Origin: Desmodus rotundus
Taxonomy: Eukaryota; Chordata; Mammalia; Chiroptera; Phyllostomidae
Direction: 5' to 3'
Length of the DNA: 64,000 bases
Assembly: GCF_022682495.2 (NCBI RefSeq)
Contig: NC_071389.1
Coordinates: forward strand, 185,427,556 to 185,491,555
The number at the start of each line of letters is the position of its first letter. The stretch's first letter is position 1. Shown here in pieces: positions 44,685 through 50,500 of the stretch. A model generated the notes under the pieces. It was not told the DNA's origin. It saw only the letters and a program-made list of their open reading frames with translations, and made no database searches. The position numbers and the translations under genes were made by a program.

Positions 44685-47511
44685 GTAAGTGATCGTTTTC
44701 TCCGAGGTACAAGGCATACACGCCTAGTCGTTTCTCAGACTACGCTTCGTCTTTGAGACATCAGTAAAAGACTCAAGGCCCCGCGTGGCACTAACTTGAG
44801 CCCAAGAGATGCTCTGGTTGGAGCTAGGTGGTTGGGAAGCTTTGAACTGGGATTTTGATGTTAATTCTGGGCAGCATGTCCCGAGAAGTGGGATGTATGT
44901 TTCCTTTTGTTTCCTTTTGTAACCGGAAATTGATCAGTGAAGCCTAGTTGGAGGGTAGAGGGGCGGTTCTGTACACAAAGTTCATGAATCTTAGGAGTCG
45001 TTGGCAACATTTGTTTGTATATGCATTTTCCTGGAAACGCAATTATAGATTTCTTCAAATCCTCAGAGGGCTGGCTCCACGACCCCTCTAATTCGAAAGG
45101 TTGTGCCTAAGCCCTTCAAAGTGCTGGTTGGTTAACCTGGTTCATTATAGAGTCAATTAAACAAATAATACCATAGCATTCATGTATGTTTGCATAAAGA
45201 ATAAGTAAATTTAAAGACACGCTTTTCTTCTATCATATTCGCATAGGGTTTTTTTTTTTCTCCCTCTTTTCCGTTTTCTTTTAAAAGAGAACAGTCGAAC
45301 TGCTTAGGGATGGAAATTGTTACAACCTTCTGAAAAACCTTTAGCAATATGTATCATTGCTTTTATCCTTTGACACAGCAATTCAGTTATCAGTTAGCCA
45401 AGGAATAAATTAGAGGTGCTTGCTAAGAGTAAATACAGGATACTATGAAGTATTTATAGACATTGTGTACCATAGCGAAAGAAAGAAAAGAAAGCATGCT
45501 AAATAATCAAGAATAACAAACTGGTTAAAATTGTAATACAATCATAAGATTGACTACAATGCAGCTTTTAAAAATCATGTGTTTAAACACAGAGAGAAAA
45601 GTACACGTGTGTATGATTGATAATGGCTCTAGTTTGTCTTCCTAAATAGATTGTAAGCTCAAGGTGGACAGCAATCACATTTAAAACTACTTCTTTGCCC
45701 TATACCAGCTTGCTGATTGAAAATCTTTGACTTTATGGAAACTTAATTTTATGGCCAGAATATTGAACTTATAAACTTTTTACCAGAATGTTATTGAGAA
45801 TGTTATTTAATTTAACTAATTAAAGCTAGAAAGACCCTGGACTTTACTGTAGGTTCTCTATTCATCTCTTTGGTGGCAGAACCAATACCCACCCACCTGC
45901 AAGGATTTCTTGAGGATTATTTAAGAAAGAAAAGAAGCCCGGTATAGAACCTCATATACACTAGAAACCTAAAAAGAAGACTTAATTTTGTTATTATTTG
46001 AAGAACAATGAGAAACTCGGGTTTTGGATATTATTTGGCATCCAGGGTGGTGGCTAAGTAAATGTATTTATAGCAACTAAGTATTTAGGAAATAATTATA
46101 TTATTTAATTCTTTGTTTACAGGGTTGTTCCTAACTGTCAGTTCAGGTCAAAAACAGCACGTCTTAAAACCTTTACTGCTAACCAGATAGATGAAATAAA
46201 GGACCCTTCTGGACTCTTTTACATCCTTCCCTTTCAGAAGGTAATTCAATGATGTCATTTCTGCCATTACAGACCTAAATTGAAAGATAATTTTTAAATT
46301 TATGTATAATATTTTGTATGTATGGAACTATTTTTAGATCTCTGAAAAAAGTCATTTAAATTTTAAATGAGAGCTTAGTAAAACCAAAATTGGTTTTCTC
46401 TTGTTAAAAATAAATAATCATGATTGACTTACTGGCTATAAGTGTGCGTGCTGAATTTTGTTAGTTTATGTTAAAGATAAATGAGCTGAACACATTAAAG
46501 AAAAGAAGTGTAGAGAATCATCTCTACATATTGGTATGTCTTTTGAACTCTTGACATTTTGGTTATTGTTCATTTGCAATTTTTTGAACTTGTAGAAGGA
46601 GGAAAAACAGTATTAGACTGATGAAGGTAACCATAAAGAAATAGAAATCAGTGATTTAAAATATATTAATCTGTTTTTAAAAATTGTTAAAATATTTTTC
46701 ATTATTAAATTTATTTAAAAAATTTTTTAGGGTTACTTGGTGAATTGGGATGTTCAAAGACAAGTTTGGGATTACCTTTTTGGAAAAGAAATGTATCAGG
46801 TAACAAATTAGAGTATGTATTCAAATTTATTTCCATGTCTTAATGCAAATGAAAAATTGGAGCTTTTATTTTAAGATTTATAAACTTTTGAATATGCTTC
46901 AAATATTTAAGTCACTTAATATACTATGCCTAGCTTTTTTTTTTAGCATTTAAAAAGCTTTTTATTTCAATTCTTTCAACACAATTACCTTTCTTTTTTT
47001 AAATAATTTTAATTTTTTATTGTTATTCAATTACAGTTGCGTGCCTTTTCTCCCCATCCCTCCACCCCACCCCAGCTGAACCCCCCTCCCTCCCCCACCT
47101 CTACCCTCCCCCTTGATTTTGTCCTTGTGTCCTTTATAGTAGCTCCTATAGACCCCTCTCCCCACTATCCCCTTCCCACTCCCCTGTGGCTATTGTTACA
47201 ATGTTCTTAATTTCAATGTCTCTGGTTATATTTTGTTTGCTTTTTTCTGTTGTTGATTATGTTCCAGTTAAAGGTGAGATCATATGGTATTTGTCCCTCA
47301 CCATCTGGCTTATTTCACTTAGCATAATGCTCTCCAGTTCCATCCATGCTGTTGCAAAGGGTATAAGCTCCTTCTTTCTCTCTGCTGCGTAGAATTCCAT
47401 TGTATAAATGTACCATAGTTTTTGGATCCACTCGTTTGCTAAAAATATGGAACGCTTCACGAATTTGCGTGTCATCCTTGCGCAGGGGCCATGCTAATCT
47501 TCCCTGTATCC

Positions 47512-47547
<36 letters not shown>

Positions 47548-50500
47548 AGCTTCTTTTTTTTTTTTTTTTAAGATTTTATTTATCTTTAGAGAGAGAAGGG
47601 AGGGAAAAAGAAAGGGAAAGAAATATCAATGTGTGGTTGCCTCTTGTGTGCCAACCCCCACCCCCACCCCCGACTCAGGACCTGGCCCGCAACCCAGGCA
47701 TGTGCCCTGAGAAGGAATCAAACTGGTGACTCTTTGGTTCACAGGCCAGCACTCAACCCACTGAGCCACACCAGCCAGGGCACTATGCCTAGCTTTGATT
47801 TTCTAAATATTAAGTAAGTGCAAATGAACAAAATTTCCATATTGAAGTGGAATTTGAGGTTGAGAAGAGATAATCTGTATGAAACTCAAGATGAAAATTT
47901 TACTTTAGATTTCTACTGTTATTAGACTCTGTCTTATTTTTATTTTCACAATAAAATATTTTTACCTACATATCTAAATATGTGAATATTACAATGTGAG
48001 AAATTTGTGTTTTAAATGTCGGTTGTGTGACTCTAAGTATACAGAGAGAATGTTCAAATTTTAATTCTGCTTGAGAATGCAGGGGAGAGAATTATGTAAA
48101 CATTAAATATCCTCAAGCTTCTTGCCTTTTAACTTTTAAAAGCAAAATAACAACAACCCCAGTGCTTATAGTTATTGACTACTTTTGCGTAATTACCTTT
48201 AAACCATTTGATACTACCTTTTTATTCATATTACCATTAAGACAATTAAAGTTAAATAATAGTCAAAGTGCATGAATTCTGTAATCAGACTTCCTGTGTT
48301 CAAATACTGGCTATGTCACTAACTAGGTACATGAGTGTTGGTAACCTACTCAACTTTTGTGCGCCTCAGTTTGTTCACCTATTAAATGGGTATAATAAGA
48401 ACTGGATTATTGCATCCATTTAATAGGTTAATAATTTAATAATTTGCTAGGATTATTGTGAGGATAAAATCAGTTTGTTTATATATGTGAAACATGTTTA
48501 TAACTATAACCACAAAGTTATAAAACTCTTGGGATTTTTTCCTCTCATAGGTTGATTTTTTAGATACTAATATTATTATCACAGAACCATATTTTAACTT
48601 CACTTCAATTCAAGAATCCATGAATGAAATCCTATTTGAAGAATACCAGTTCCAAGCAGTATTAAGAGTAAATGGTGAGTTAAGGTTTTGGTTGAAGTTG
48701 AATTATGCGAATATAGATATGGATAGGGTAAAAGAACACTTAAAATTCAAGAATATCAGGTGGCATTCTTTTAGATTTGAAGGAAATAAACCATGGAGTT
48801 TAAGAACTAGATGGATCCTTAGAGATTATTTATTCACACTTCTCTCATTTTATCTTAATTTTTTTATTGATTGATTTGAAAGAGAGAGAAAAGAAAAGAA
48901 ACATCTGTTTGTTTTTTCACTTTATTTATGAATTCATTGGTAGATTCTTGCATGTGCCCTGACCAGGGATCGAACCCACAACCTTGGTGTATTGGGATGA
49001 TGCCCTAACCAACTGGACTACCCAGCTAGGGCGTCCCATTTTATCTTTTTACTATTATGATAGTTCTCTCTAATGAAGTTCCTAGCCACATATTTCTAAT
49101 TTCTAAAAGATTATTGTTTTTGTGGTAGTTACCTTTTCTGTTACAGATGTGTTAGCTACTATTATTATTGATTGAAATAATGTTAATAGTTCAGGCTGTC
49201 AACATGAGGAAAAACAATCTGTAAATACCATCCAGAAGTAAGTTTATTAAAGGTTAGAATTGCATTATATGGCTGTACAATGAACATATTCAAATATTTA
49301 GCTTTCAGAATTTAAGTCTACATAAAGGAACAATATACTATCATGGTTACAAGCAGAATCTCTAGAACAAGTTCTCAGCCGAGGGTGATTTTGCTCCTCA
49401 GGGGACGTTTGGCAATCTCTTGAGACATCTTTGGTTGTCACAACTGTGAGAGTGCTGCCAGCATCTAGTAGATAGAAAGGCACAATGCTGCTGAGTATTT
49501 TACAATGCCCAGGAAAGCCCCAACAACAAGGAATTATCTGCGCAAAATGTCAGCACTTCCAAGGTTGAGAAGCTCTGCCCTAGAGTCACACTGCCTAGGT
49601 TTGAATCCTGGCTCTGTTAGTTTCTAATTGCGTGACTTTGGGGTATATTACTGAACTCTGTGCTGCAGGTTCTGTAAAATGGGATTGTTGTGAGATTAAA
49701 ATACACCTTTGAGGAGTTTAGAATAGGGCCCAGCATGTAATGAATGCTCAGTAAAATTATCTGCTGCTAAAATAATAATTATAAGCTATGAAATGAATAT
49801 TTACCTTTAAAAATTGATCACATATTCATCTTATATGTACCACAAAAAGGTGATGTTTTAAAGTTTAAACACTGTAAAGAACTCTTGACAGAATTATGAA
49901 TATAATAAATGAACATTTTTCTTATAAATAAAAGAAAAATTTTTTCTTTGCTTGCCTTAGTTTCTACTTTTCTTTGTTACTTTAAATTAATTACATTTTA
50001 ATGTTTATTTTTCTCCTTATCTTCTTTTTTAATAGCTGGGGCTCTCAGTGCACATAGGTATTTCCGAGATAATCCTTCCGAATTATGCTGTATCATTGTA
50101 GACAGTGGATATTCCTTTACACATATAGTCCCTTATTGTAGAAGTAAAAAGAAAAAAGAAGCAATTATTCGGTAAGTTGCAGTTGATTTTTGTGTTATTT
50201 CTTAGGACAAAATGGAAAAATGTGTGATAAACTGATCCAATTTTGCATTCTTCCTTTTTAGGATAAATGTGGGAGGAAAACTCCTAACCAATCATCTAAA
50301 GGAGATCATATCTTACAGGTAATACTTCTTCTTTGGGAGGATGGGATGCTGGCAATGAACCTTTTCAAGCAGTTTAAAACTATTCTTTACCCTTGTTGTA
50401 ACTTCATGTGGCAATTCTATGTTATTATTGTTTACAAAGCTTTTTCACATATATAAATACTAATGATGTTTAAATTGAAAAGCTCTCTAGTGCATGAAAT

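What the first reader, a model, noticed from the sequence alone, without database searches (positions are those of the whole stretch)
46938..47781. Tripartite VES-U6-L1 chimeric retrotransposon with one target-site duplication
Seen directly: on the minus strand a VES SINE with A tail, a full-length U6 snRNA copy and an L1 3' end follow each other, and a perfect 15-bp duplication (ACTATGCCTAGCTTT) bounds the whole block, starting exactly at the VES 5' end. No duplication flanks the VES alone. U6-L1 chimeras made by template switching of the L1 reverse transcriptase are known in primates. A three-part version with a bat tRNA-type SINE as the 5' partner implies two switches (L1 RNA to U6 RNA to VES RNA) in one event. 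I do not know of this exact combination being described.
Basis: partly seen in the sequence, partly recalled or inferred. Interest (0 to 1): 0.8.

Follow-up and report, generated by a model that had tools for sequence, protein, structure and literature searches.

The report
U6-L1 insertion in bat SINE tail
A jumping-gene copy made of a small spliceosomal RNA joined to a LINE-1 end most likely landed in the tail of a slightly older bat SINE, so what looks like one three-part insertion is probably two ordinary ones, one inside the other.

Summary
The anatomy is real: on the minus strand a full-length VES SINE with an A16 tail, a full-length U6 copy and a 5'-truncated L1 3' end, bounded by a perfect 15-bp duplication. 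The single-event, double-template-switch reading is not the best one. Six bases, GAAGCT, lie between the VES tail and U6 position 1; they match the start of the duplication (AAAGCT) with one mismatch. The simplest account is nested insertion: VES went in first with the 15-bp duplication, then a bipartite U6-L1 landed at the boundary of its A-tail and 3' duplication, an A-rich site of the kind L1 endonuclease cuts. The outer duplication is then VES's own. SINE-U6-L1 tripartites with 15- and 16-bp repeats are published from mouse (B2-U6-L1), and nested insertion is in print as the alternative for triple chimeras. No bat orthologue could be reached, so the order of events is inferred from one locus; the ages of VES and U6 do not decide.

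The parts
47782..47796 (-). 5' copy of the 15-bp target-site duplication AAAGCTAGGCATAGT (read here as the VES duplication)
   Evidence: directly abuts VES position 1
47570..47781 (-). VES SINE, full length, ending in AATAAAATCTT
   Evidence: blastn: 12 further matching places in the window at E up to 1e-3, whole and partial; alignment of 9 copies
47554..47569 (-). VES A16 tail (partly or wholly within the second duplication in the nested model)
47548..47553 (-). GAAGCT: probable remnant of the VES 3' duplication (AAAGCT, 1 mismatch), cut off by U6
47441..47547 (-). Full-length U6 snRNA copy, starting at U6 position 1 and ending in T5
   Evidence: Rfam RF00026, 111.9 bits, model 1-105/105
46994..47440 (-). 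5'-truncated L1: end of ORF2 (stop at 47259-47257), 3' UTR, first A-run (A7)
   Evidence: match to solved LINE-1 ORF2p, E 5.1e-14; translation
46945..46993 (-). 49-nt extra segment with AATAAA, probable L1 3' transduction
   Evidence: sequence after the L1 A-run; no second copy in the window; one other L1 copy (2020-2110) ends in ATTTAAAAAAAA at the matching place
46935..46944 (-). Second A-run (A10), merged with the As that begin the duplication
46923..46937 (-). 3' copy of the 15-bp duplication; in the nested model it belongs to VES

Best explanation
Two successive L1-mediated insertions. Step 1 (inferred): a VES SINE RNA was inserted at AAAGCTAGGCATAGT, giving duplication - VES - A-tail - duplication. 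Step 2 (inferred): a bipartite U6-L1 copy, made by U6/L1 RNA ligation or by one template switch and carrying a 49-nt 3' transduction, inserted at the boundary of that A-tail and the 3' duplication. Its own duplication was A(n)AAGCT, leaving A16-GAAGCT before U6 and A10-GCTAGGCATAGT after the L1. The outer 15-bp duplication is the VES one. Shown: all parts, the outer duplication, and the 5-of-6 match of the filler to the start of the duplication. Inferred: the order, the second duplication (almost all A) and the transduction. The confidence given covers both nested versions (see the second rival).
For: The filler before U6 is GAAGCT, against AAAGCT, the start of the duplication, in exact register with the U6 start. 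899 of 127988 six-mers in the window, both strands, come this close (0.7%). Of 72 other A-runs of 7 or more, 0 are followed by any base plus AAGCT, and 1 has GCT anywhere in the next six bases. In six other full-length VES copies a repeat of the 5' flank follows the A-rich tail: at most 4 of 500 shuffles reach its score in 5 of 6; V23a is weak, 45 of 500. So a tail followed by the start of the element's duplication is what an ordinary VES should show. The start of the VES tail here (TCTT|AAAA) matches the motif TT/AAAA, sense orientation, given for L1 endonuclease. In Myotis lucifugus 378,564 Ves copies are reported, 11.5% of them parts of dimeric SINEs, so joined elements are frequent; the same paper says of mouse B2/B1 dimers that it does not know whether they arose by integration into a tail. 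Doucet et al. name this alternative for triple chimeras.
Against: The filler match was noticed after the fact and has one mismatch (G for A). Only GCT lies outside A-rich sequence (chance about 1%; 0.1% for AAGCT). An automatic local alignment of the 22 bases before U6 with the 22 bases before VES scored an A-rich stretch best, not GCT. The second duplication cannot be delimited because it is nearly all A. Relative age does not decide: VES private changes 7 of 149, U6 changes 3 of 107 against the mammalian U6 as I recall it. The perfect outer duplication and the long A16 tail suggest that VES is not much older than U6-L1. No orthologous locus was seen.
Confidence: 0.8

Rival explanations
1. 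One tripartite event: reverse transcription began on L1 RNA (or a ligated U6-L1 RNA), ran to the U6 5' end, jumped to the poly(A) 3' end of a VES RNA, copied it in full and integrated with one 15-bp duplication.
For: Perfect outer duplication starting at VES position 1; all parts in the same orientation; VES and U6 full length and L1 5'-truncated, as listed for published chimeras; VES and U6 not clearly of different age. Mouse B2-U6-L1 tripartites with 15- and 16-bp repeats have been read this way.
Against: GAAGCT at the VES-U6 joint lies outside the U6 match and follows the VES tail; it matches the start of the duplication. The VES and U6 parts are thus not directly joined, whereas direct joining is a stated feature of such chimeras.
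Confidence: 0.15
2. Nested insertion, second version (a sub-case, its probability lies within the 0.8 of the best explanation): the VES, not the L1, carried the 49-nt segment at its 3' side, and U6-L1 entered the A-run between them. The inner duplication would be A7GAA, seen before U6 (AAAAAAAGAAGCT) and after the L1 A-run start (AAAAAAAGAAAGG).
For: A perfect 10-base match, A7GAA, on both sides of U6-L1. It accounts for the G that the first version treats as a mutation.
Against: It leaves GCT just before U6 to chance. The 49-nt segment holds TTTTT, which should stop a pol III transcript (general knowledge) before the A-run, whereas AATAAA followed by an A-run fits an RNA polymerase II transcript such as L1.
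Confidence: 0.15
3. U6-L1 went in first and VES inserted later at its 5' edge.
Against: VES would need its own complete duplication between its tail and U6; only six bases are there.
Confidence: 0.03

Closest known systems
Mouse B2-U6-L1 tripartite elements (Gogvadze et al. 2007, PMC2104539; abstract and sections 3 and 8 read)
   Same: SINE, then U6, then L1 (5' to 3'), with perfect 15- and 16-bp flanking direct repeats
   Different: The SINE is B2, not VES. Whether the mouse copies carry a partial duplication at the SINE-U6 joint was not checked; their sequences are in a supplement that was not open to me
U6-L1 bipartite chimeras (Law and Burns 2026, PMC13174262, abstract and sections 10, 12, 17; Doucet et al. 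2015, PMC4476161, passages and section 9)
   Same: Typically full-length U6 in sense orientation joined to a 5'-truncated L1; 180 loci catalogued in human. In Myotis lucifugus 10 of 111 analysed U6 copies are tied to retrotransposons
   Different: Here it probably sits at the tail of a SINE and is followed by an extra 3' segment
Dimeric SINEs (PMC8466645, passages only)
   Same: Two elements joined one behind the other; 43,824 Ves copies are reported in dimers
   Different: The second element here is U6-L1, not a SINE; the authors leave open, for B2 and B1 dimers, how they arise

Membership tests
Bipartite U6-L1 chimera | Full-length U6, sense to L1 | tested here: met
   RF00026 1-105/105, same strand as the L1 ORF2 end
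Bipartite U6-L1 chimera | Direct joint to a 5'-truncated L1 3' end | tested here: met
   U6 T5 ends at 47441, L1 from 47440, last ORF2 codons onward; the exact first L1 base was not set against a consensus
Bipartite U6-L1 chimera | Own target-site duplication | tested here: inconclusive
   A(n)AAGCT with one mismatch, or A7GAA; A-rich, cannot be delimited
Tripartite single-event chimera (double template switch) | One target-site duplication around all three parts | tested here: met
   15-bp perfect duplication, but the nested model predicts the same
Tripartite single-event chimera (double template switch) | Parts directly joined (feature listed) | tested here: not met
   U6-L1 joint is direct, but six extra bases GAAGCT lie between the VES tail and U6
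Tripartite single-event chimera (double template switch) | All parts arrive together across species | not testable with these tools
   The genome search on the own assembly did not answer in 10 tries; no bat relative was reached
VES SINE | VES head, body and A-tail | tested here: inconclusive
L1 3' transduction | Non-L1 sequence with poly(A) signal between the L1 tail and a second A-run, with a source locus | tested here: inconclusive
   49 nt with AATAAA, then A10; the source locus could not be searched for outside the window

The most novel reading that the evidence does not exclude
A single L1 reverse transcription event copied L1 with a 3' transduction, then U6, then a complete VES RNA: a four-segment chimera from one priming event, with a bat SINE as 5' partner and GAAGCT as untemplated or tail-derived filler.
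Probability: 0.15. Interest if true: 0.35.

Novelty: new member of a known kind. Interest (0 to 1): 0.15.

Why it matters
One perfect outer duplication does not prove a single event: a second insertion at a SINE's tail/duplication boundary leaves the same outer repeat. A short remnant of the duplication just before the inner element is a cheap diagnostic. It could be applied to the published mouse B2-U6-L1 tripartites, which have been used as evidence for double template switching in mammals.

Tried and rejected
VES age against U6 age. A majority consensus of six other window copies gave VES 29 changes of 188 non-CpG sites against 3 of 107 in U6 (Fisher p 0.0007). I do not use this, because the consensus mixes subfamilies and the other six copies lie at 0.105-0.201 by the same count. 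Private changes (7 of 149 in this copy; 5 to 14 of 139-148 in the six others) do not separate VES from U6. The U6 count is my own against a recalled reference; the script only took the number.

GAAGCT as part of U6 or VES: rejected. The Rfam match starts at the base after it, and none of the 11 other places printed shows GAAGCT after its tail.

Copies used. One search lists 12 further places matching VES. Searches used the six that I judged full length (V59, V18, V43, V23a, V23b, V52) for consensus and flank repeats; two partial ones (V17, V34) were in the alignment and served only in the private-change count; four places (1-70, 37259, 52410, 59194) were left out. In one search the aligned stretches partly include the last VES letters (V59, V43), and in V52 and V23a the repeat starts 12 and 25 bases beyond the point where I set the end of the element.

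More VES or L1 copies from viral contigs: the exact 20-base VES pattern found none; the L1 pattern found one contig, L001, with the match near its end, not used further.

Literature: no paper on VES-U6-L1 was among those listed (4 of 4 listed; 20 of 868; 8 of 8; 14 of 15; 0 found; 10 of 14), judged by titles, starts of abstracts and the passages I read. The library holds open-licence papers only, so this is not proof of absence. Moldovan et al. 2019 (U6/L1 ligation) is not held; I know it from statements and from recall.

Full report
Observation. The reported parts are present on the minus strand. The U6 copy is full length (Rfam RF00026, 111.9 bits, positions 1-105 of 105). The L1 piece starts within the last codons of ORF2: of 60 residues, 3-58 match residues 1217-1272 of a solved LINE-1 ORF2p chain (E 5.1e-14), with the stop at 47259-47257. 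The SINE aligns end to end with other copies in the window. The duplication AAAGCTAGGCATAGT occurs twice in the window at up to two mismatches, both perfect, exactly at the block ends (expected 0.12).

Two features not in the finding. First, between the VES A16 tail and U6 position 1 lie six bases, GAAGCT. Second, after the L1's A7 run come 49 nt containing AATAAA, then A10, then the duplication. The one other L1 copy in the window that clearly reaches this end (2020-2110, 72% identical) shows ATTTAAAAAAAA at the same place, so the 49 nt look extra to the L1, like a 3' transduction. They have no second copy in the window; the rest of the genome could not be searched.

Why nested insertion is preferred. 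The duplication begins AAAGCT; the six bases before U6 are GAAGCT. 899 of 127988 six-mers on both strands come within one mismatch of AAAGCT. Of 72 other A-runs of 7 or more, 0 are followed by any base plus AAGCT; 1, at 14100, has GCT within the next six bases. For six other full-length VES copies I aligned the 22 bases upstream with the sequence around and after the tail start. A flank repeat is clear in five (at most 4 of 500 shuffles score as well) and weak in the sixth, V23a (45 of 500). The VES here thus looks like an ordinary SINE whose 3' duplication was cut after its first bases by U6-L1; the duplication is complete again after the L1, as expected when the inner insertion duplicates its own target. 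The tail start TCTT|AAAA fits the L1 endonuclease motif TT/AAAA (as given), so the tail is an expected target.

Weak points. The match was noticed after the fact, has one mismatch, and only GCT is informative outside A-rich sequence (about 1% by chance). An automatic local alignment of the filler region with the 22 bases before VES preferred an A-rich stretch. A second nested version, with A7GAA as the inner duplication and the 49 nt belonging to VES, fits the G better but leaves GCT to chance. Dating does not help: private VES changes are 7 of 149 against 3 of 107 in U6, counted against the mammalian U6 as I recall it. Thirty duplicated bases without a change have probability 0.40 at 3% and 0.08 at 8% divergence, so VES is probably not much older than U6-L1. 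The A16 tail agrees: tails of 5-10 greatly outnumber longer ones in Myotis lucifugus Ves (passage).

Mechanism of the U6-L1 part. Full-length U6 in sense, joined to a 5'-truncated L1, is the common type; 180 such loci are catalogued in human, with RNA ligation before reverse transcription or template switching as proposed routes. Nothing here separates the two.

Known background. Gogvadze et al. 2007 report two mouse elements made of B2 SINE, U6 and L1 with perfect 15- and 16-bp repeats and read such elements as double template switches. Doucet et al. 2015 state that triple chimeras can come from double switching or from two insertions, the second inside the 3' end of the first, and count 126 selected U6 hits in Myotis lucifugus, 111 analysed, 10 of them tied to retrotransposons. 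In Myotis lucifugus 378,564 Ves copies are reported, 11.5% in dimers. So neither the SINE-U6-L1 order nor the nested alternative is new; a VES version was not among the papers listed in my searches (see Tried and rejected).

Limits. No bat genome could be searched: the own-assembly search did not answer in 10 tries, and the viral contigs held no exact match to a 20-base VES pattern. The order of insertion is inferred from one locus.

Noticed in passing
46945-46993 (-): 49-nt segment with AATAAA after the L1 A-run, followed by a second A-run: probable L1 3' transduction, source unknown.
   Followed up: partly
34029-34125 (+): VES-like copy with an internal deletion that breaks off after about 90 bases near an A-run; looks like a truncated or rearranged SINE.
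   Followed up: no
23508-23712 (+): VES copy with a poorly matching flanking repeat (45 of 500 shuffles score as well), so perhaps an old insertion or a disturbed 3' end.
   Followed up: partly
39811-39862: G+C-rich 21-bp tandem repeat (GGGGCGGGGCGAGCGAGAGGA, 2.5 copies) in a window of 36% G+C; possibly part of a CpG island or promoter.
   Followed up: no
21311-21425: AT-rich tandem array with overlapping periods (2, 10, 13, 38, 53).
   Followed up: no
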